DNA of 27,183 nucleotides from a virus: the IMG/VR virus record IMGVR_UViG_2199352024_000050, positions 1 through 27,183 of that record; one strand, 5' to 3'. Below the pieces are notes generated by a model that searched no databases, was not told where the DNA came from, and saw only the letters and a program-made list of their open reading frames with translations. This document shows, piece after piece, positions 7,620 to 26,984 of this stretch (position 1 is its first letter; every line of letters begins with the position of its first letter). Position numbers and translations under genes: made by a program.

Positions 7620-8104
7620 CGACTGCGACCCCACTTTATGGCACCACCACTGCCATGACGATCACGTTGGCGAGCCTTGCCAGCGATACAAACTTGGTGG
7701 CAGGCCGGCAAAGCACGGTCGCTGCGAACGGTACCGATGATGCGATTGACGCGCTGGTGGGCGGCAAGGTCACAACCGGAACGACCCCGACAGCTTCCAA
7801 ACAAATTGAGGTTTGGCTTTTCGGGTCTTACGACGACACGGAATACAGCGCCGGCGCCGGCGCATCCGATGCCAATCTGACGCCGGATACCAAAACGTTG
7901 CTGAAACTGCTGACGATCATTCCGACCGTCAATACATCGGATAAAGCGTATCGCTGGGGGCCGTTTTCGGTCGCTCAGGCTTTCGGTGGCGTCATGCCGG
8001 AAAATTGGGGCGTCTATATTGTTCACAACACGGGCGTGAACCTGAATGCCACGGGCGGCAATCACGAAGTTCATTACACGCCGGTCAAATACGAGAGCGC
8101 GTGA
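7616..8104 (+). CDS. Probable virion structural protein (beta-sandwich type)
   Basis: 162 residues, starting at ATG 7616 within an ATGA overlap. The sequence opens with a Thr/Ala-rich segment (MTTATPLYGTTTAMTITLAS). Residues 57-80 (TPTASKQIEVWLFGSYDDTEYSAG) and the end (AFGGVMPENWGVYIVHNTGV, then HYTPVKYESA) resemble beta-sandwich phage proteins whose core reads QIEVWLFGSYDD and WGVYIVHNTG. No enzymatic motif is visible. It is followed by an overlapping LamG-type gene, so the two probably belong to one exposed substructure, for example decoration or fibre components. That role is inferred from composition and context. Confidence 0.75.
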   Translation: MTTATPLYGTTTAMTITLASLASDTNLVAGRQSTVAANGTDDAIDALVGGKVTTGTTPTASKQIEVWLFGSYDDTEYSAGAGASDANLTPDTKTLLKLLTIIPTVNTSDKAYRWGPFSVAQAFGGVMPENWGVYIVHNTGVNLNATGGNHEVHYTPVKYESA

Positions 8105-8847
8105 TGGCCGCAAATTTCGTTGCCGCCAGTACGCAGTATCTTGCAAATGCAGCCGTTCCGTTTACTGCGGTCCCATTTACTATCGCGCTTTGGTATTATC
8201 CGATAAATACGACGACACAGACGGTATTGTGTTTGTCTGACACTGGAACCACCAACAATTACTTTAATTTACGGAAGATTTCCACAGTCTATCAGTTGCG
8301 ATCGGCGGCAGGTGGCGCCGATGCATCGGCAAGCGCAGGCACTTTTGCCGCCAATGCGTGGACGTTTATTGTCGCCCGCTGTATCTCGGCTACGAATAGA
8401 CGGCTGGCTGTTCTTAATCCAGATGGTTCAGCAGGTAATGGCCAAGACACGACAAGTCGTGCTCCATCTGGGATTGACACACTCGGGATCGGGGCCCTGC
8501 TCACCTCCGGCGCGCCTCAATCTCCGATAGATGGACTTATCGGAGAATTTTGGTGCACTAACACGGATATTCAGGATGATGGTCTGGCGCTGCAAGGTGC
8601 CATGTTGCGTCAGCTTGCGTATGGAGGACCATTTTCCGTACCGCATATTGCCAAAGACATCATCGAGTATCATTCGTTCAGGAAGGACCTGAGTTCCGAC
8701 ACCTTTGACAATGAAGAGGATTTTTTGGGTGGCATAGGGATTGGGGAAGTTCTGACCAACACAAATGGTGTGACGGTAGGCCCGCATCCCCCCTTGCCGT
8801 ATTGGTACGAAAGACCGAGGCAGAGCCGCCGCGTTCTGACAATCTGA
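8104..8847 (+). CDS. LamG/concanavalin-A-like domain protein
   Basis: 247 residues from ATG 8104, which overlaps the previous stop; a longer frame from 8005 is rejected because it runs over the preceding gene. The protein has the jelly-roll layout of the LamG/ConA-like lectin superfamily: FTIALWYYPINTTTQTVLCL (about 25-44), AANAWTFIVARCISATNRRL (about 82-101), and SPIDGLIGEFWCTNTDIQDD (about 141-160). The C-terminus ends PYWYERPRQSRRVLTI. Such domains in phages usually sit on the virion surface and bind glycans or stabilise capsids. Placed between small beta proteins and the 22-residue-repeat protein, it is likely a capsid or tail surface protein that may attach to host polysaccharide (inference). 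Confidence 0.75.
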   Translation: MAANFVAASTQYLANAAVPFTAVPFTIALWYYPINTTTQTVLCLSDTGTTNNYFNLRKISTVYQLRSAAGGADASASAGTFAANAWTFIVARCISATNRRLAVLNPDGSAGNGQDTTSRAPSGIDTLGIGALLTSGAPQSPIDGLIGEFWCTNTDIQDDGLALQGAMLRQLAYGGPFSVPHIAKDIIEYHSFRKDLSSDTFDNEEDFLGGIGIGEVLTNTNGVTVGPHPPLPYWYERPRQSRRVLTI

Positions 8848-11795: not shown

Positions 11796-12794
11796 ATGAC
11801 TGCTGCATTCGTCAGCGACTCACGATTGCAGGAAGTGCTGTCGTTGGCTCTTGAGGATCGGTCCAAAGGCTACGCCGACCTCGTTTCCAACAGCAACGCC
11901 ATTCTTGCAATGATGAAGGAGAAAAGCGGCTGGAAAAGCTTCTCAGGCCCGACCATCCGCGAACGTCTCCTCTACAACGAAACCGGAAGCTATGTCCGTT
12001 ATACGGGTTACGACTTCCTGAATCCTGTCCCCACCGAACTGTTCAACGACGCGGAATATACGCCCAAGCTGGCGGCTGTTTCGGTTGTGCTGTCCGGTGA
12101 GGAAATCCTCAAGAACTCCGGCAAGGCGCAACTGCTCGACGTGATGGAGGAACATATCTCCGCCGCTGAGCGTGAATTGACCGACCGGTTCGTCGAGGAC
12201 TTGCACTCCGATGGCACCGCCACCAATCAAATCGGTGGCTTGCAAGCCGCGGTGCCGACGACCGTTACCAACACCTATGGCGGCATTGACCGCAATACGG
12301 TGGCGGGATGGAAAACCGGCTCCTACAACGGCAACTCTGATTTTTCGGCAGCGACCGCCGCCGCGAACATCCACGACCAGTATACGCGTGTCCTCATCGC
12401 CCGTACTCGTGGCAAGCAGGGGCCAAACCTGATCGCCACGGATTCCGTCCATTTCCGTTTCTTCCAGCAGGCACTGGTCGCAATCCAGCGCGTGACCAAG
12501 GACGGCAAGATGGCGTCACTCGGCTTCCCGTCCCTGGCTTTTGCCGGCGCCGGTTACGAGTTGGACGTGGTGCTTGAGGGCGGTATCGGATCGGCCATGC
12601 CGGCCAACACCAGCTATTTCTTGAAGGTTGGTGATGACGGCCTGCGCTTCCGCTACCACGCGGATCGCAACTTTGTCGCCTTCGGCGGCAAGCAGCGTCC
12701 GGTTAACCAGGACGCGGTTGTCCAGCACATTGGTTTCTTCGGAAACCTGACGCTGGCCAATCCGCTGTTCCAGGCCAAGCTGATCACGAGCTAA
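11796..12794 (+). CDS. Major capsid protein
   Basis: 332 residues, follows the scaffold gene, with AGGA before ATG. It begins MTAAFVSDSRLQEVLSLALE; next come GYADLVSNSNAILAMMKEKS (about 35-54) and the segment SYVRYTGYDFLNPVPTELFN (about 68-87), which leads into the extended arm and the spine-helix region VVLSGEEILKNSGKAQLLDV. The central domain includes NLIATDSVHFRFFQQALVAI (about 210-229), and the C-terminal part FGNLTLANPLFQAKLITS ends the shell-forming domain. The layout fits HK97-fold capsid proteins of phages with a separate scaffold. No N-terminal delta domain is evident. Strong general support; the exact capsid subfamily cannot be named here. Confidence 0.9.
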   Translation: MTAAFVSDSRLQEVLSLALEDRSKGYADLVSNSNAILAMMKEKSGWKSFSGPTIRERLLYNETGSYVRYTGYDFLNPVPTELFNDAEYTPKLAAVSVVLSGEEILKNSGKAQLLDVMEEHISAAERELTDRFVEDLHSDGTATNQIGGLQAAVPTTVTNTYGGIDRNTVAGWKTGSYNGNSDFSAATAAANIHDQYTRVLIARTRGKQGPNLIATDSVHFRFFQQALVAIQRVTKDGKMASLGFPSLAFAGAGYELDVVLEGGIGSAMPANTSYFLKVGDDGLRFRYHADRNFVAFGGKQRPVNQDAVVQHIGFFGNLTLANPLFQAKLITS

Positions 12795-12808: not shown

Positions 12809-13306
12809 ATGGCTTACACTTTCCAGAACAACTCCCTTGGCTATCAGCCTATCGCTGATACCAGCACCGTGCAGAAGCATAAGATCGGAACAATCGTTAC
12901 CGCGTTTGATTCGTCTTATGGTACTGGTGAGTTCATCTATTTGCTTGGTGTGGCATCAACCGCCGTTGGCGATGCCGTCACCTTCAACTCAGCCACCGGG
13001 CAAACCACCCGCTCGGCTGTTGGGGCAAATAAGAGCTTGCCCGTCGCCTTCGCCATGTCCGCGAACGTTGCCAGCCAATACGGCTGGTATCAGATTTCGG
13101 GCATTGCGCGCGCAACGAAAGCTGCCACGATTTCCTTGGCGGCTGGCGTTGCCGTTGCCATCAAGACCGTGGGCCGCATCTCGGTCACCGGCACCGGCAA
13201 GGAACTGAACGGTGCCGTGGTTACGGCGGTGGCCTCGGCCAAAACCGGCGTCATCCTTGTGTCGCTGGTCGTGAACAGACCACGTTTGCAAGGGCGTATC
13301 ACATAA
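12809..13306 (+). CDS. Probable capsid decoration/stabilisation protein
   Basis: 165 residues, 14 nt after the capsid gene with GGGAG upstream. It is almost entirely beta: HKIGTIVTAFDSSYGTGEFI and YLLGVASTAVGDAVTFNSAT (about 25-64), LPVAFAMSANVASQYGWYQI (about 78-97), then TISLAAGVAVAIKTVGRISV (about 106-125). This fits the small beta-barrel proteins encoded right after capsid genes that trimerise on the capsid surface. The pattern GxxVxAxD-x-GxGEFIYLxGVASTxVGDxVxF is typical of that role. It is the last gene before a strong intrinsic terminator, so it likely closes the head-gene transcript and is made in amounts similar to the capsid protein (inference). Confidence 0.75.
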   Translation: MAYTFQNNSLGYQPIADTSTVQKHKIGTIVTAFDSSYGTGEFIYLLGVASTAVGDAVTFNSATGQTTRSAVGANKSLPVAFAMSANVASQYGWYQISGIARATKAATISLAAGVAVAIKTVGRISVTGTGKELNGAVVTAVASAKTGVILVSLVVNRPRLQGRIT

Positions 13307-13314
13307 TAAAACTT

Positions 13315-13346
13315 GGCGGGGGTTCACAACCCCCGCCATTTCTTTC
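13315..13346 (+). terminator. Strong intrinsic terminator after the head genes
   Basis: GGCGGGGGTT (13315-13324), loop CAC, perfect complement AACCCCCGCC (13328-13337), then ATTTCTTTC. A 10-bp GC-rich stem with a T-rich tail. It lies between the decoration gene and the DUF115-methyltransferase gene and should reduce transcription into the tail genes unless antiterminated. Confidence 0.88.
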
Positions 13347-13352
13347 AGTGCC

Positions 13353-13359
13353 AAGGAGG
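13353..13359 (+). promoter_or_regulatory. Ribosome binding site deciding the start at 13364
   Basis: AAGGAGG, 4 nt before ATG 13364. It fixes the start of the two-domain enzyme downstream of the terminator. The alternative upstream start at 13313 would place the terminator hairpin inside the coding region and has no such signal. Confidence 0.8.
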
Positions 13360-13363
13360 CTTT

Positions 13364-14758
13364 ATGGCTGAGTTGCATATCCGATATCGGAATGAAGGCA
13401 CCACCATGCCTCTGATCATTCCCGTGTCGGTGCTGATCAATACACCACCTGAAAAGTTGTTTTCTCACATCAGGCAGAACTCCAAGAACTGTCAACGCTG
13501 GCTCAAGCAGGAACCCGCGCACGATGGCATTGCGCTGTTGTGCGGCTCCGGCCCCAGCATCAAGCGCGATCTTTCCGACATTCGAGCGAGACAGGCACAG
13601 GGTGCCAAGGTTTTTGCGCTCAATGCTGCCGCTCAATATCTTGCGGAACACGACATCTATCCAGACTTCCAGGTAATGATCGACGCCAAGGAAGAAAGCA
13701 TCAGCCTGATCGGCCCGGCTCGCCAGCATCTTTTTGGAGCGACGGTGGACCCCAAGTGTTTCGAGGTGAAGCCCGATGCCATCCTGTTTCAGTTGCAGGT
13801 AGATGACGACGATCTACAGTCTGAGATCGACGCACTCGCCACGCATGAATACTCCATGATGAGCACTGCTGTCAGCGTCGGACTTGTCTCGACCATTGTT
13901 ACGTTCACGGAGGGATACCGCGATCTGCATTTCTATGGCTTCGATTCCTCACACGAGGATAACGAAAGCCATGTGGTCCGTCAGGAAATGAACGACATCG
14001 TGGCCTGCATGAATGTCAGTTTTTGCGGCAAGGATTATGTTTCATCTCTGCCAATGAAATTGCAGGCCGAGCGCTTTATGCAAGTCGCAAATCTTCTCAA
14101 GGGGGAAGGCTGCGAGCTTCATGTGCATGGTTCCGGCCTGCTGCCGGATATGTATCGGGCGCCGGACGAGGAACTTTCCGAAAAGGAAAAATATCTCCGC
14201 ATGTGGTCGATGCTCTCTTACCGGCAGGATTCTCCGGCAGAGCGCATCGTGGATACCATCCTGCGGGAATTGCGCCCGACCGGACGGATTGTGGATTTCG
14301 GTTGTGGGACAGGTCGCGCCGCGGCCCGCATCAGTGCGCTGGGACATGACGTGCTGCTCGTCGATTTCGCGCCGAATTGCCGGGATGAAGAGGCTGCTGG
14401 GCTTCCGTTCGTCGAACTGGACCTTGCCGAGCCCATGCCGATCCGGGAGCAATTTGGCTACTGCATTGATGTTATGGAACACGTTCCGCCGGGTCAGGTG
14501 GATGCCGTCATTTGCAACATCATGACCTCAGCGCCGGACGTGTTTTTCCAGATCAGCACGGTTGACGATAAGTGCGGCGTGCTGATCGGCCATCCCCTGC
14601 ATCTCACCGTCCGCCCGCATGCGTGGTGGCGAGCGAAGTTCAACGATCTTGGCTATTTCGTGCGCTGGCAGGAAATGGGCGAGATCAGTTCCAGTTTTCT
14701 AGTCCAGGCGTCAACATTCAAACCAAAGGAGAAGGCAGATGGCCTCAAACGCCACTGA
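13364..14758 (+). CDS. DUF115/MptE-like domain fused to SAM-dependent methyltransferase
   Basis: 464 residues. The N-terminal half (about 55-265) has the DUF115/MptE-like layout: IALLCGSGPSIKRDL (56-70) with the GSGPS nucleotide-binding-type loop, KVFALNAAAQYLAEHDIYPD (82-101), FQVMIDAKEES (102-112) and LHFYGFDSS (188-196). Relatives include archaeal 6-hydroxymethylpterin diphosphokinase and bacterial flagellin-modifying proteins, as well as phage proteins of unknown role. The C-terminal half (about 292-450) is a class I methyltransferase: motif I IVDFGCGTGRAAARI (309-323), the acidic end of strand 2 at LLVDFAP (D334), and CIDVMEHVPP (367-376) as motif IV/post-motif. The gene lies between a terminator and a connector-type gene that it overlaps by 20 nt. 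A role in modifying a nucleotide, glycan or virion component is plausible, but the substrate is unknown. Confidence 0.8.
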   Translation: MAELHIRYRNEGTTMPLIIPVSVLINTPPEKLFSHIRQNSKNCQRWLKQEPAHDGIALLCGSGPSIKRDLSDIRARQAQGAKVFALNAAAQYLAEHDIYPDFQVMIDAKEESISLIGPARQHLFGATVDPKCFEVKPDAILFQLQVDDDDLQSEIDALATHEYSMMSTAVSVGLVSTIVTFTEGYRDLHFYGFDSSHEDNESHVVRQEMNDIVACMNVSFCGKDYVSSLPMKLQAERFMQVANLLKGEGCELHVHGSGLLPDMYRAPDEELSEKEKYLRMWSMLSYRQDSPAERIVDTILRELRPTGRIVDFGCGTGRAAARISALGHDVLLVDFAPNCRDEEAAGLPFVELDLAEPMPIREQFGYCIDVMEHVPPGQVDAVICNIMTSAPDVFFQISTVDDKCGVLIGHPLHLTVRPHAWWRAKFNDLGYFVRWQEMGEISSSFLVQASTFKPKEKADGLKRH

Positions 14759-15404
14759 GCAGGACAAGGCGCGTCCGCGTTTTTACATGGATGCGGTGCA
14801 TAATATGGCGCTTTCCACCAAGGAAGGCCGCCCGATTTATGAAGATAAGGAAATGGTTGAAGTCCGCATTCCGGGCGACAAGCTTTTTTCCTTCGTCAGT
14901 GTGGTCGAGGAGAAACACAAGGAACGCTGGCCCGAGCATTACGCCGCCTTCAAGCGTGGTGAGCAGCAGGCCACTATCGGAATGCCGCTGGAACATTGGG
15001 CGCATCCTTTGCTGTCGCGCAGCCGCATTGCTGAATTGAAGGCCATGCACATCATGTCGGTGGAAGACTTGGCCGGCGTCGGCGACAATGTTCTGCCAAA
15101 AATCGGCATGAATGCGCGTGAGATGCGGGATTCCGCCCGCGCCTATATTGAGAACGCCAAGGGCGGCGCGGAAAGCTCCCGACTGGCGACGGAAGTTGCC
15201 GATCTGCGGGCACAGGTCGCGCAACTGTTCGCCGTGAAGGCACCCGAGCCGGTTCCGCAGAAGGAAAAGACCCTTGAGGACTGCACCGACGCGGAACTGA
15301 AAGAGTATATCAAGCGTGAGACAGGCGAGGGCGTGCGGGGCAATCCTTCGCGGGAAACCCTGCTCAAGCGCGCGGCGGAAGTCGCTGAGAAAGTCGCCGC
15401 CTGA
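14739..15404 (+). CDS. Phage protein with HhH-like and HeH/SAP-like segments
   Basis: 221 residues. ATG 14739 has AAGGAG upstream and overlaps the enzyme gene by 20 nt. Residues 12-90 form a mixed domain (RFYMDAVHNMALSTKEGRPI; then EHWAHPLL). Residues 96-125 (RIAELKAMHIMSVEDLAGVG) resemble a helix-hairpin-helix turn, residues 145-166 are a short coiled coil, and residues 178-213 (TLEDCTDAELKEYIKRETGE through NPSRETLLKRA) resemble the HeH/SAP-like fold found in phage proteins and linked to DNA or protein contact. The pattern GMPLEHW-x-LxxxRIxELKAMxIxSVEDLA recurs in phages just before head-tail adaptor genes. It is probably a virion or assembly protein at the connector; this is inference. Confidence 0.75.
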   Translation: MASNATEQDKARPRFYMDAVHNMALSTKEGRPIYEDKEMVEVRIPGDKLFSFVSVVEEKHKERWPEHYAAFKRGEQQATIGMPLEHWAHPLLSRSRIAELKAMHIMSVEDLAGVGDNVLPKIGMNAREMRDSARAYIENAKGGAESSRLATEVADLRAQVAQLFAVKAPEPVPQKEKTLEDCTDAELKEYIKRETGEGVRGNPSRETLLKRAAEVAEKVAA

Positions 15405-16117
15405 TGGCTACCGTCCTCGCCATCATTCAGGATGCATGCAAACTGATGGGGCGCGCGGCTTTGGCTGTCGCCCCGTTGGCTGTTTATGGCAGCGCTGACA
15501 CCTTTGCACGCGAATTGGCGACGGTGGCGAATGAGGCGGCGACATACATTATGAAGCAGCACGATTGGCGGCTGCTGACGACGCTAAAAACACAGGCCGG
15601 TGACGGCTCGGATACATCTTTTCCCCTGCCGTCTGACTATGACCGGATGCCGGTCAAGGCAGCGGTGTTTCGCGCTTCCACCACGCGGCCCATGGTTGGC
15701 ATTCAAGACCTCGATACCTGGCAGTTTAATCGGCTGCAAAGCCTGTCCAACCCGACCGGGGAATGGATTTTGTTGGGAGGTGAATTGCAAATCTACCCGG
15801 CCTTGGCTTCGACTGACAGCGCCAAGTTTTACTATATCTCCAACAAATTCGCGACGGCGGTTGATGCCGTCACCACAAAAGCAGCGTTCACGGTCGATAC
15901 CGATACCTTCCGGCTGGGTGACCGGCTGCTTAAGCTGGCGATCATCTGGCGTTGGCGGGCGCTCAAGGGCCTCGACTATGCCGAGGATATGCAGAACTTC
16001 GAGATTGCCTTCGCGCAGGAGATCACACGGGACAAGGGTTCACGCAAAATCGTCATCGGCAAAGCGCGTATTCCTGACGGCGTAAGCCTCGCCTATCCGG
16101 GCACGATCGATGCGTAG
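15404..16117 (+). CDS. Head-to-tail adaptor protein (P22 gp4 / T7 gp11 type)
   Basis: 237 residues, starting at an ATG that shares one base with the preceding stop. The helical N-terminus (LAIIQDACKLMGRAALAVAP) and EAATYIMKQHDWRLLTTLKT (about 46-65), followed by FPLPSDYDRMPVKAAVFR (about 72-89) and GEWILLGGELQIYPAL (about 119-134), fit the adaptor family that docks under the portal in short-tailed phages. The WR-x-L-x-x pattern, the F-x-LPxDYDRM segment and the GGxLxIYPA strand are family hallmarks as I know them. The C-terminal part (ITRDKGSRKIVIGKARIPDG) is conserved-looking. It overlaps the tail-nozzle gene by 8 nt, so these two are probably translated together. Confidence 0.82.
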   Translation: MATVLAIIQDACKLMGRAALAVAPLAVYGSADTFARELATVANEAATYIMKQHDWRLLTTLKTQAGDGSDTSFPLPSDYDRMPVKAAVFRASTTRPMVGIQDLDTWQFNRLQSLSNPTGEWILLGGELQIYPALASTDSAKFYYISNKFATAVDAVTTKAAFTVDTDTFRLGDRLLKLAIIWRWRALKGLDYAEDMQNFEIAFAQEITRDKGSRKIVIGKARIPDGVSLAYPGTIDA

Positions 16118-17663
16118 CGCGGCAAGGCGCGTCGTCAAGAAAGGTGTGGCGAAGGAAAAGGAGAAATCCATCCCGGCCCCTATTGGAGGGTGGAATCGGC
16201 GCGATGCCATCGCTGATATGCCGGAAACCGACGCGATCATTCTTGACAATATGATCCCCGGCACGGAGGGCGTCTCGCTCCGTAATGGACGGGATACACA
16301 CGTTACCGGGCTCGGCACGTATATTGAAAGCCTGATGGAATATTCGCCGCCGTCAGGTGTGCCAAAGCTGTTTGCTGCTGTTCCAACCGCAATTTATGAC
16401 GTTACCGCCGCTGGCGCCGTGGGTGCTGCAGCTGTTTCCTCGCTGACCAATGGCCGCTGGCAGCATACGATGTTCGCCACGGCCTCTGCTAATTTCCTCG
16501 TTCTTGCCAATGGCGCCGATAGTGTTCGCAACTATGACGGATCAAGCTGGACGACGCCGAGCATTACCAATGTCTCCTCTGCCGATCTGATCCACGTTAC
16601 GGCTCATGCCCAGCGGCTCTGGTTTGTCGAAAAGAACAAACTGGATGCCTGGTATCTCGGTGTATCGGCAATTTCGGGTGCGGCCACAAAGCTGCCGCTC
16701 GGCCAGTTCTGCAAATTGGGCGGATATCTCGTTGCTATCGGGTCGTGGTCGCGCGACGGCGGCTCCGGCATGGACGATATGTGGGTTGCCGTTACGTCGA
16801 ATGGCGAGGTGGTCATTTACTCTGGTACTGACCCGTCGAGTTCAACCACATGGACGCAGGTTGGTGTGTTCAAGATACCGCCTCCTGTTGGTCGGCGCTG
16901 CATCGTTAAAGCCGGGTCTGACTTGGGTATTCTGACGGCGGTAGGGCTCATTCCATTATCGGCTGTTCTGGCCGCGAACCAATCGGGGCAGGCGCTCGTT
17001 GCCATCACAGACAAGATCAGTGGGGCGTTCAAGGATTATTACCAACGGTCAGGAACAGCCTTCGGCTGGCAGGTGATCGAATATCCTGAAAAGCAGCTGA
17101 TCCTTGTCAACATTCCTTATACTGAGCGTTCTATCCAATATCAGGCGGTAATGAATGTCAGGACCGGCGCATGGTGCCGGTTCACCGGATTTGACTTCGG
17201 ATGCTTTTCGTTGCTCGGCTCGTCGCTCTATGCCGGAGATAATACCGGAACGGTCTGGAAATATTCTCTTGAAGGTCACGATGATGACGGCGACGAAATA
17301 TCCGCCACTATCCTGCAGGCATTCACCAATTGTGGCTCGCTGCTGCACAAGGAAGTCACGCAGGCGCGGCCCATTCTGATGGGGCCTGGCAATTATACGC
17401 CAGTCGTTGAGATCAAGGTCGATTACGATACGCGGGCGCCCACAGCAGAGGCGGGAGTCACGGCAACAACGGAACCGTTGTGGAATGTGGCGCTCTGGAA
17501 CGTGTCGTTTTGGAGTTCCGGCTCGGTGCAGCGCAAGGAATGGCAGTCGGTGAGCGGTGGTGGGCTGGTGATCGCGCCTGCAATCAAGATTTCCATTGCG
17601 AAAGAACTCGTCATCAACCGCACAGATATTCTTTACGAGGAATCGGGCTTGGTCGATGCCTGA
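16110..17663 (+). CDS. Tail nozzle / packaged-DNA stabilisation protein (P22 gp10-like)
   Basis: 517 residues with a basic N-terminus (MRSAARRVVKKGVAKEKEKS) followed by IPAPIGGWNRRDAIADMPET and DAIILDNMIPGTEGVSLRNG. That is the usual start of podoviral tail hub proteins: a strand with GGWNxRD and then the LDNMxPxxxGxxLRxG segment. The rest is a series of beta blades (TNGRWQHTMFATASANFLVL; GGYLVAIGSWSRDGGSGMDD; VMNVRTGAWCRFTGFDFGCF), consistent with the beta-propeller-like P22 gp10 fold. The C-terminal region with repeated W residues (LWNVALWNVSFWSSG) would face the tail tip. It overlaps the adaptor gene (8 nt) and the GNAT gene (8 nt). Confidence 0.85.
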   Translation: MRSAARRVVKKGVAKEKEKSIPAPIGGWNRRDAIADMPETDAIILDNMIPGTEGVSLRNGRDTHVTGLGTYIESLMEYSPPSGVPKLFAAVPTAIYDVTAAGAVGAAAVSSLTNGRWQHTMFATASANFLVLANGADSVRNYDGSSWTTPSITNVSSADLIHVTAHAQRLWFVEKNKLDAWYLGVSAISGAATKLPLGQFCKLGGYLVAIGSWSRDGGSGMDDMWVAVTSNGEVVIYSGTDPSSSTTWTQVGVFKIPPPVGRRCIVKAGSDLGILTAVGLIPLSAVLAANQSGQALVAITDKISGAFKDYYQRSGTAFGWQVIEYPEKQLILVNIPYTERSIQYQAVMNVRTGAWCRFTGFDFGCFSLLGSSLYAGDNTGTVWKYSLEGHDDDGDEISATILQAFTNCGSLLHKEVTQARPILMGPGNYTPVVEIKVDYDTRAPTAEAGVTATTEPLWNVALWNVSFWSSGSVQRKEWQSVSGGGLVIAPAIKISIAKELVINRTDILYEESGLVDA

Positions 17664-18141
17664 ACTTATGGGTTCGGTTCTATTCGGCGCCGATGAATTT
17701 GTCGCGGATTTTGTCAGGGTCAGACTTGGTGGCCACACCCGCTTTGTCGATGGTTATACGGCCTTGGGTGTTGTGCGGCGTGGAATATTTGCCGGTGGCG
17801 TCGTTTATCACAATTTCCAACAATTGGCGCACGGCAACACGATAGAGACTTCCATCGCGTTCGACGATGCAACGTGGGCGCTGCCTCAAACGCTGCGAAC
17901 CCTTTTTACCTATCCTTTCCTCAATCTGGAATGCGTGCGGCTTACGTCCATCGTGGCGGAAGGCAATGAACGTTCCAGGAAATTCTGTGAAGGGCTTGGG
18001 TTTGATCTTGAGGGTATCCACCCGAGAGGGATGGACGGCAAGGAAGCGGCAGTGTCTTACGGACTTCTCCGCGAGAATTGCCGGTGGATAAGGAATAGAG
18101 ACATTGGGCAAAAGTTCACCACAACAGCCAACGCCGCCTGA
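17656..18141 (+). CDS. GNAT-family acetyltransferase-like protein
   Basis: 161 residues from ATG 17656, overlapping the tail gene stop; ATG 17668 is an alternative. The fold signature of a GNAT enzyme is seen in ALGVVRRGIFAGGVVYHNFQ (strands 2-4), the helix-strand region around LNLECVRLTSIVAEGNERSR, and KFCEGLGFDLEGIHPRGMDG (about 109-128), the terminal N-x-x-ArgArg-FxExLGFxxEG motif. The classic acetyl-CoA loop R/Q-x-x-G-x-G/A is not clear, so catalysis is uncertain. Similar proteins recur between the tail hub and ejection genes of podoviruses and may modify host or virion proteins. The 3' end overlaps the next gene by 38 nt in another frame. Confidence 0.75.
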   Translation: MPELMGSVLFGADEFVADFVRVRLGGHTRFVDGYTALGVVRRGIFAGGVVYHNFQQLAHGNTIETSIAFDDATWALPQTLRTLFTYPFLNLECVRLTSIVAEGNERSRKFCEGLGFDLEGIHPRGMDGKEAAVSYGLLRENCRWIRNRDIGQKFTTTANAA

Positions 18142-26383: not shown

Positions 26384-26589
26384 CCATGTGGGAACGCATC
26401 AAAACTTGGTTTAAGGATTCTGAGACGATCTTTTGGGCGCGGCTGCAAGTGTTTATTGGATCTGTCTTTACGGTCCTGACGGTTACCGATCTATCCCCAT
26501 TGCTTCCGCCAAAATATCTCACGATTTGGCTCATTATTTCCGGCGTCATCACGGAGCTGCTGCGGCGTCGGCGCGATGAGGCTATGTGA
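26380..26589 (+). CDS. Holin-like membrane protein 1
   Basis: 69 residues from ATG 26380 in an ATGA overlap with the endolysin gene; ATG 26386 is an alternative. An AGAGGA sits just upstream at 26374-26379, suiting the second ATG better. The short helical cap WERIKTWFKDSETIFWARLQ leads into a first membrane helix (VFIGSVFTVLTVTDLS) and a second (KYLTIWLIISGVITELL), ending in RRRRDEAM. Two membrane helices and a basic cytoplasmic tail next to an endolysin are the usual holin features. The motif DSETIFWARLQ, with W-x-ISGVITELLRRRR, resembles small holin-type proteins of rhizobial phages. Confidence 0.75.
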   Translation: MTMWERIKTWFKDSETIFWARLQVFIGSVFTVLTVTDLSPLLPPKYLTIWLIISGVITELLRRRRDEAM

Positions 26590-26984
26590 TGTGGGGTGTC
26601 CTTGCCAAGTTCATCCCGTTCCTCGATCCGATCACGTCAATTGTCGGCAAACTGGCCGACGCCAAGGTAGAACTCGCCAAGGCGGAAACCGATGAAAAGC
26701 GCATCGCAGCGAAGGAGCGGGTAGACACTCTGCAAATGCGGCGCGACGTACTGGTCGCGGAGGCCGGCAGCGGTATCAACGCCAAGATGCGCGCCGGGCT
26801 TGCGCTCGGCCCAATGGTCTATCTGACCAAGATATTTCTGTTCGACAAAGTGCTTGGCAGTTTCCTTGGCTACACTAAGGACATTTTCACCACTGATCCA
26901 CTGGACGACAATCTCTGGAAGGTTGTCGTGGCTGTCGTCGGTTTCTATTTCCTCTATGAAATCGGCGCCCGGTTCAAAAGATGA
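26589..26984 (+). CDS. Holin-like membrane protein 2 (GTA-holin-like)
   Basis: 131 residues from ATG 26589, overlapping the previous stop by one base; a GTG at 26586 is less likely. The N-terminus (MWGVLAKFIPFLDPITSIVG) is amphipathic. Residues 22-58 form a charged coiled coil (KLADAKVELAKAETDEKRIA). Two membrane helices follow: RAGLALGPMVYLTKIFLFDK (about 68-87) and LWKVVVAVVGFYFLYEIGAR (about 109-128). The layout, coiled coil followed by LVAEA-x-S and hydrophobic helices, resembles the three-TM holins of gene-transfer agents (PF11351-like), though only two strong helices are seen. A second holin or antiholin partner of the gene at 26380 is the natural reading (inference). Confidence 0.7.
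   Translation: MWGVLAKFIPFLDPITSIVGKLADAKVELAKAETDEKRIAAKERVDTLQMRRDVLVAEAGSGINAKMRAGLALGPMVYLTKIFLFDKVLGSFLGYTKDIFTTDPLDDNLWKVVVAVVGFYFLYEIGARFKR

What the first reader, a model, noticed from the sequence alone, without database searches (positions are those of the whole stretch)
13364..14758. DUF115/MptE-like domain fused to a SAM methyltransferase among head and tail genes
Both halves keep recognisable motifs (GSGPS loop and FGCGTG motif I). The fusion sits directly after the head-gene terminator with its own strong ribosome binding site. DUF115 relatives act on pterins or on flagellin glycans, and a linked methyltransferase suggests a two-step modification, perhaps of a virion glycan, a nucleotide or a host surface sugar. 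The function is undescribed as far as I know.
Basis: partly seen in the sequence, partly recalled or inferred. Interest (0 to 1): 0.6.

Follow-up and report, generated by a model that had tools for sequence, protein, structure and literature searches.

The report
Phage head-glycan transferase–methyltransferase fusion gene
A gene beside the capsid genes of many uncultured bacteriophages fuses a sugar-transferase-like domain, related to the enzymes that decorate bacterial flagella, to a methyltransferase; it most likely adds and methylates a sugar on the virus particle, a phage trait that has rarely been studied.

Summary
Window 13364-14758 (+) encodes one 464-aa protein with an MptE-like/DUF115 domain and a class I SAM methyltransferase, after a clear terminator and with its own ribosome binding site. 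The window belongs to an Mx8-like podovirus. The fusion recurs in 116 distinct proteins, at least 112 of them in the same capsid-gene neighbourhood. In an MCP-based sample it is an accessory gene (DUF115 in 26 of 66 complete slots), and cultured relatives such as Mx8 lack it. The two halves also occur as adjacent separate genes and in reversed order, beside unrelated capsid types. In the same slot DUF115 is joined to glycosyltransferases, including GT-A–DUF115–MTase single proteins. By profile, DUF115 matches the flagellin glycosyltransferase Maf (1.4e-15) far better than pterin kinase MptE (0.0015), and it lacks MptE's DxDGD motif. Best explanation: a Maf-like sugar transferase plus O-methyltransferase that builds a methylated glycan on virion proteins. 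Sugar chemistry next to the capsid is well supported; the substrate (decoration protein), donor and methylation site are inferred.

The parts
13364..14758 (+). Fusion gene, 464 aa: DUF115/Maf-like sugar transferase domain + class I SAM methyltransferase
13364..14158 (+). DUF115/MptE-like (Maf_flag10-type) half; PF01973 core at 13523-13954; S65, D107, G184, G192, D194, G258 invariant in 51 relatives, N87 and H203 in 50 of 51
14165..14707 (+). Class I SAM methyltransferase half: motif I VDFGCGTG, acidic residue D334 after strand 2, DVMEHxPP, LHLTV-WW
13314..13338 (+). Intrinsic terminator-like hairpin between the head genes and the fusion gene
13353..13359 (+). Shine-Dalgarno AAGGAGG
   Evidence: read from the sequence
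12809..13306 (+). Virion structural (decoration-like) protein, phrog_29386; proposed acceptor or partner (inferred). A gene of this family was present in 26 of 26 MCP-selected slots with DUF115
11796..12794 (+). Major head protein, phrog_9953 (Mx8-like)
14739..15404 (+). Conserved downstream neighbour, phrog_20268 (Mx8 p50 homologue); right border of the slot
15404..16117 (+). SU10-type head-tail adaptor

Best explanation
The protein is a two-step glycan enzyme of the virion assembly operon. The N-terminal half is a Maf/CstII-type transferase that moves a sugar from a nucleotide-sugar donor onto a virion surface protein or onto a glycan already on it; the acceptor is most likely the small decoration-like protein encoded just upstream, or the capsid protein itself. 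The C-terminal half then uses SAM to O-methylate that sugar, capping it. The expected benefit is a changed head surface: stability, masking or attachment. Shown here: the domains, conserved motifs, kinship to Maf, recurrence next to capsid genes of several unrelated types, linkage of the halves, and exchange with or addition of glycosyltransferases. Inferred: catalysis, the virion as target, the order of the steps, the acceptor and the donor (CMP-linked ulosonic acid by analogy with Maf and CstII).
For: (1) A profile of 51 DUF115 halves hits Maf 5mu5 at 1.4e-15, MptE 8sd5 at 0.0015 and CstII 1ro8 at 0.048. Maf transfers nonulosonic acids to flagellin, and its PF01973 domain resembles CstII (PMC11339370). 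(2) The MptE SDLDGD stretch reads D-A-K/R in the phage family, while D107 is invariant (51/51) and H203, which aligns with a Maf His, is in 50/51. (3) 112 of 116 distinct fusions lie in the Mx8-type capsid neighbourhood, 100 with both borders seen. (4) The pair recurs beside other capsid types: MW202621 MCP, MT gene, DUF gene and further contigs with the MT after that MCP, most with the DUF gene too; T7-like MCP then an MT-DUF fusion in reversed order; D3-like MCP with DUF, MT and GT-A genes; lambda-E-like MCP then MT and DUF genes. (5) In the Mx8 slot: GT-A-DUF115 (phrog_1962, 1.7e-41), GT-A-DUF115-Methyltransf_24, GT-A-DUF115-MTase of the window's own family (L402/L404), separate DUF115, GT-B-like and MTase genes, and a hexapeptide acyltransferase next to GT-DUF115. 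(6) DUF115 occurs only with a decoration-family gene: 26/26 slots against 13/40 without DUF115, Fisher p 9e-9. (7) SAM and Maf-like motifs are kept at 40-78% identity. (8) Precedent: in cluster O mycobacteriophages an O-methyltransferase and glycosyltransferases lie between portal and protease genes and are proposed to modify the capsid (PMC4351075).
Against: No cultured phage with the fusion was found, so there are no proteomic or mass data; only two partial matches in 50,697 phage records. The gene is accessory: 40 of 66 near relatives with a complete slot lack DUF115, and all 69 complete slots nearest Mx8 lack it. No CTP_transf_3 gene was found in 17 carrier contigs, and full-length NeuB occurs in only 2 of 5 possible host genomes, so a nonulosonic-acid donor is not general. 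The decoration link is not significant after correction for kinship. The Ser/Thr excess of the decoration protein is matched by the adaptor protein.
Confidence: 0.62

Rival explanations
1. The same chemistry, but on the host: the enzyme transfers and methylates a sugar on LPS, capsule or flagellin of the infected cell, changing the receptor and blocking re-adsorption of progeny or superinfection.
For: Maf and CstII relatives act on flagella and lipooligosaccharide (PMC11339370; PMC3426422). The nearest PHROG methyltransferase family (phrog_24759) includes the phage DSL-LC06 gene, which lies among heptosyltransferase-, KpsC- and glycosyltransferase-annotated genes. A GT-A homologue in the same DSL-LC06 stretch was also found.
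Against: The gene sits in the structural operon next to the major capsid gene in several unrelated capsid lineages. DUF115 always occurs with a decoration-family gene in the MCP-based sample. Serotype-converting genes are usually placed elsewhere (general knowledge).
Confidence: 0.22
2. MptE-type pyrophosphokinase plus methyltransferase acting on a pterin or a modified nucleotide, for example in DNA hypermodification.
For: Pfam names the domain MptE-like; the fold superfamily includes MptE and thiamin pyrophosphokinase (PMC3426422).
Against: The DxDGD metal motif is missing, Maf is the far better profile match, partners are glycosyltransferases, and the place in the capsid operon does not suit DNA modification. 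No DPPY- or PC-type DNA methylase motif is seen in the sequence.
Confidence: 0.06
3. A non-catalytic virion or assembly factor that keeps the two folds.
For: Position among structural genes.
Against: SAM motif I and the DUF115 pocket residues are among the few invariant positions. The methyltransferase half is lost, gained or replaced by an unrelated one, which suits an enzyme better than a scaffold.
Confidence: 0.05

Closest known systems
Maf (motility accessory factor) flagellin glycosyltransferase, central Maf_flag10/PF01973 domain (PDB 5mu5)
   Same: Best profile match of the DUF115 half (1.4e-15); G-GPS loop, GxRxLxLFGxD segment and the following His and Gln are shared in the alignment.
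   Different: Maf has an N-terminal Rossmann-like domain and a C-terminal helical domain (PMC11339370). Here a bona fide SAM methyltransferase follows and no Maf-type C-terminal domain exists. The target is probably a virion protein, not flagellin.
MptE, 6-hydroxymethyl-7,8-dihydropterin pyrophosphokinase (PDB 8sd5)
   Same: Same Pfam family; weak profile match (0.0015).
   Different: The SDLDGD motif is replaced by D-A-K/R; the genomic partners concern sugars, not pterins.
CstII-type sialyltransferase, GT42 (PDB 1ro8)
   Same: Weak profile match over GxxxxxxAxxLGYkxxxLxGxD; phrog_4603 (alpha-2,3-sialyltransferase) gives weak hits to DUF115-only relatives.
   Different: Sequence too distant to place the catalytic His; no structural comparison was possible.
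Virion-modification genes of cluster O mycobacteriophages (Corndog O-methyltransferase, glycosyltransferases)
   Same: Methyltransferase and glycosyltransferases inside the head operon, proposed to modify the capsid (PMC4351075).
   Different: No DUF115 domain reported there; separate genes; different phage group and hosts.
P1 PmgQ/Ppp-type glycosyltransferase (phrog_1962)
   Same: Homologous to the GT-A domain that is fused to DUF115 in L303, L333, L035 and L402.
   Different: Absent from the window's own protein; partner domain only.

Membership tests
PF01973 / DUF115 superfamily | Score above the curated cut-off | tested here: met
   42.5 bits against 34.6; the same in 17 of 17 carrier contigs
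MptE pyrophosphokinase | DxDGD metal-binding stretch | tested here: not met
   D107-A-K/R in most of 51 relatives, second acidic residue absent; MptE shows SDLDGD in the HMMER alignment
Maf flagellin glycosyltransferase | Central Maf_flag10 domain | tested here: met
   Profile match to 5mu5, E 1.4e-15
Maf flagellin glycosyltransferase | Three-domain architecture with N-terminal Rossmann-like and C-terminal helical domains | tested here: not met
   Followed directly by a methyltransferase; about 50 residues before the core
Maf flagellin glycosyltransferase | Transfers nonulosonic acid to flagellin | not testable with these tools
   needs biochemistry
GT42 / CstII sialyltransferase | Catalytic His and CMP-binding residues in the fold | tested here: inconclusive
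Class I SAM methyltransferase | Motif I GxGxG and acidic residue after strand 2 | tested here: met
   VDFGCGTG and D334 conserved; Pfam above gathering score
DNA methyltransferase | DPPY/NPPY or PC catalytic motif | tested here: not met
   not present in the translated sequence
Phage virion glycosylation system | Glycosyltransferase gene in the structural operon | tested here: met
   Slot next to MCP; GT-A homologue directly downstream in close relative L003 (105-aa ORF, partial) and fused in L402/L404
Phage virion glycosylation system | Glycan present on virion proteins | not testable with these tools
   needs mass spectrometry

The most novel reading that the evidence does not exclude
A widespread, modular head-decoration system of environmental phages. 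A Maf-type transferase domain is recruited repeatedly next to the capsid gene in at least five unrelated capsid lineages and is combined, fused or side by side, with O-methyltransferases of more than one type, GT-A and GT-B glycosyltransferases and an acyltransferase, so that phage heads carry diverse capped glycans built by single multi-domain enzymes.
Probability: 0.5. Interest if true: 0.7.

Novelty: new variant of a known kind. Interest (0 to 1): 0.56.

Why it matters
Virion glycosylation is documented in few phages, and its genes are mostly annotated as hypothetical or as pterin enzymes. This family offers a sequence marker next to the capsid gene by which glycosylated heads could be predicted in hundreds of uncultured phages. 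It suggests that a flagellin-type glycosylation enzyme works on viral capsids, and it gives a compact one-protein glycosylation-plus-methylation system to test. Annotation as 'MptE-like pterin kinase' would mislead.

Tried and rejected
Ser/Thr enrichment of the decoration protein in DUF115 carriers (p 3e-11) was rejected as evidence: the adaptor protein shows the same bias. Decoration-gene association: strong by count (p 9e-9) but only 3-5 independent pairs, none opposite, p 0.06-0.25. A CMP-sugar synthesis gene in carrier contigs: none in 17. NeuB in possible hosts: full-length in 2 of 5, and small MAG contigs may be misbinned. Literature for DUF115 with phage: four papers; one was opened and proved to be a match to a longer DUF number, and none is on this gene as far as titles and abstracts show. 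PMC10527164 (virion glycosylation of mycobacteriophages) is not held. L278 gene 6189-6812 looked CstII-like by eye but had no significant match. A sulfotransferase-like gene in L348 by eye had no match in phages. A decoration-protein fold gave a poor model (pLDDT 62). The apparent reversed order in L388/L389 is an artefact of listing the first domain piece.

Full report
Observation. The reading frame 13364-14758 (+) is open for 464 codons and carries two Pfam domains above their curated cut-offs, MptE-like (PF01973, residues 54-197) and Methyltransf_23 (286-413). The gene follows an 11-bp terminator hairpin at 13314-13338 and has AAGGAGG 4 nt before its ATG. The neighbours are a phrog_12082 portal protein, a phrog_9953 major head protein, a phrog_29386 virion structural protein, phrog_20268, an SU10-type adaptor and a phrog_5107 protein. 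The window is a 27-kb virus record. Its capsid protein is 30-47% identical to those of Mx8, Mx9, Rhizobium phage RHph_I3_18, Bradyrhizobium ppBjS10J-1, Stenotrophomonas BUCT555, Microcystis Mwe-JY13 and others, so it is an Mx8-like podovirus.

Accessory status. In those named relatives the fusion is absent: nothing, or other genes, lie between the head genes and the p50 homologue. Among the 80 viral contigs nearest to the Mx8 capsid protein none has DUF115 (69 with a complete slot). Among the 80 nearest to the window's capsid protein, chosen without regard to the gene, 66 span the slot: 7 carry the fusion, 19 DUF115 without this methyltransferase, 1 a methyltransferase alone and 39 neither. 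All DUF115 copies found in that sample are between the capsid or decoration gene and the p50 homologue, or run off the contig on that side.

Recurrence. Searches with the methyltransferase half and the DUF115 half gave 116 distinct fused proteins; 100 have the Mx8-type capsid neighbourhood on both sides and 12 on the side that the contig covers. One lies in a 649-kb Isosphaeraceae contig and is thus probably a prophage. The DUF115 tree puts 68 of the 71 fusions sampled in one supported set with two DUF-only copies; the fusion label needs six changes, at least four forced by well-supported branches, so the halves have joined or parted more than once.

The halves belong together. In phage record MW202621, of another capsid type, a methyltransferase gene 40% identical to the window's half follows the capsid gene, and the next gene is a DUF115 protein (hhalign probability 90%, E 1.4e-6). 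Further contigs (L335-L340, L362) have the methyltransferase after that capsid gene, and in L335-L338 and L340 the DUF gene is seen too. In L129 the order is reversed, methyltransferase then DUF115 in one protein, directly after a capsid gene that matches a solved major capsid protein at 4e-29 and the T7-like cyanophage capsids. In L351 a D3-like capsid gene is followed, after a connector-like gene, by DUF115, methyltransferase and GT-A genes. In L401 a lambda-E-like capsid gene is followed by methyltransferase and DUF115 genes. With the Mx8 type that makes five capsid types.

Sugar chemistry. In the same slot of Mx8-like phages DUF115 is joined to other enzymes. L035 has an N-terminal GT-A domain (phrog_1962, 1.7e-41) and a neighbouring hexapeptide acyltransferase. 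L303 has GT-A, DUF115 and an unrelated methyltransferase, PF13578, in one protein; L333 is similar but cut by the contig end. L402 and L404 have GT-A, DUF115 and the window's own methyltransferase type in one 690-aa protein. L270, L276 and L293 have separate DUF115, GT-B-like and methyltransferase genes (the GT-B assignment rests on weak Pfam scores). L003, a close relative of the window (68% identity), has a short GT-A homologue directly after the fusion. The GT-A family includes P1 PmgQ.

Relation to known enzymes. The DUF115 profile matches Maf (5mu5) at 1.4e-15, MptE at 0.0015 and CstII at 0.048. Published work places the Maf PF01973 domain near CstII and describes Maf as a transferase of nonulosonic acids to flagellin (PMC11339370). 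The MptE motif SDLDGD is not kept: the phage family has an invariant Asp107 followed by Ala (or Pro) and mostly Lys/Arg. His203 is kept in 50 of 51 relatives and aligns with a His of Maf. The methyltransferase half keeps the SAM motif; its profile hits are mostly small-molecule methyltransferases.

Mechanism. The most likely function is transfer of a sugar to a virion surface protein or its glycan, and O-methylation of that sugar. The decoration-like protein encoded just upstream is the favoured acceptor, because DUF115 was never found without a gene of that family in the MCP-based sample (26 of 26 against 13 of 40; p 9e-9), although only 3-5 independent comparisons support this once kinship is considered. 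The donor is open: no cytidylyltransferase was found in 17 carrier contigs, and possible host genomes have full-length NeuB in 2 of 5 cases and a cytidylyltransferase-family gene in 4 of 5. If the host supplies the donor, it may be CMP-Kdo or another nucleotide sugar.

Novelty. An O-methyltransferase and glycosyltransferases in the head operon, with a proposed capsid modification, are described for cluster O mycobacteriophages (PMC4351075), so the kind is known. A Maf-type DUF115 transferase fused to a methyltransferase next to capsid genes was not found in the papers searched; the library does not hold most subscription papers. The verdict is a new variant of a known kind.

Limits. Each collection scan returned at most 80 loci. 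Several neighbour identities were read by eye; those used above were tested by profile or by database match, except the connector-like gene in L351. No experiment on any member of this family is known to me.

Noticed in passing
window 17596-18141: GNAT-type acyl-CoA N-acyltransferase (phrog_4470, 1.2e-31) conserved in the morphogenesis operon of most Mx8-like phages, including Mx8 p53; a second possible virion-modifying enzyme.
   Followed up: partly
L402 and L404 2534-4603: Single 690-aa protein with GT-A, DUF115 and the window's methyltransferase type in the capsid slot.
   Followed up: yes
L012 7290-8114; L071 4494-5216; L105 3170-3889: A second, DUF115-only gene directly after or near the fusion gene.
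   Followed up: partly
L035 4505-5395: Hexapeptide-repeat acyltransferase next to a GT-A-DUF115 protein in the capsid slot.
   Followed up: partly
L348 1844-2464: Sulfotransferase-like gene by eye next to DUF115 and methyltransferase genes; no match in the phage collection.
   Followed up: partly
L130, L131, L132: Relatives of the methyltransferase without DUF115 in contigs labelled as Chlamydiae; L131 lies among ordinary cellular genes.
   Followed up: partly
window 8005-8847: Laminin_G_3 (ConA-like) domain protein between portal and scaffold genes.
   Followed up: no
window 26586-26984: GTA_holin_3TM protein at the end of the window.
   Followed up: no
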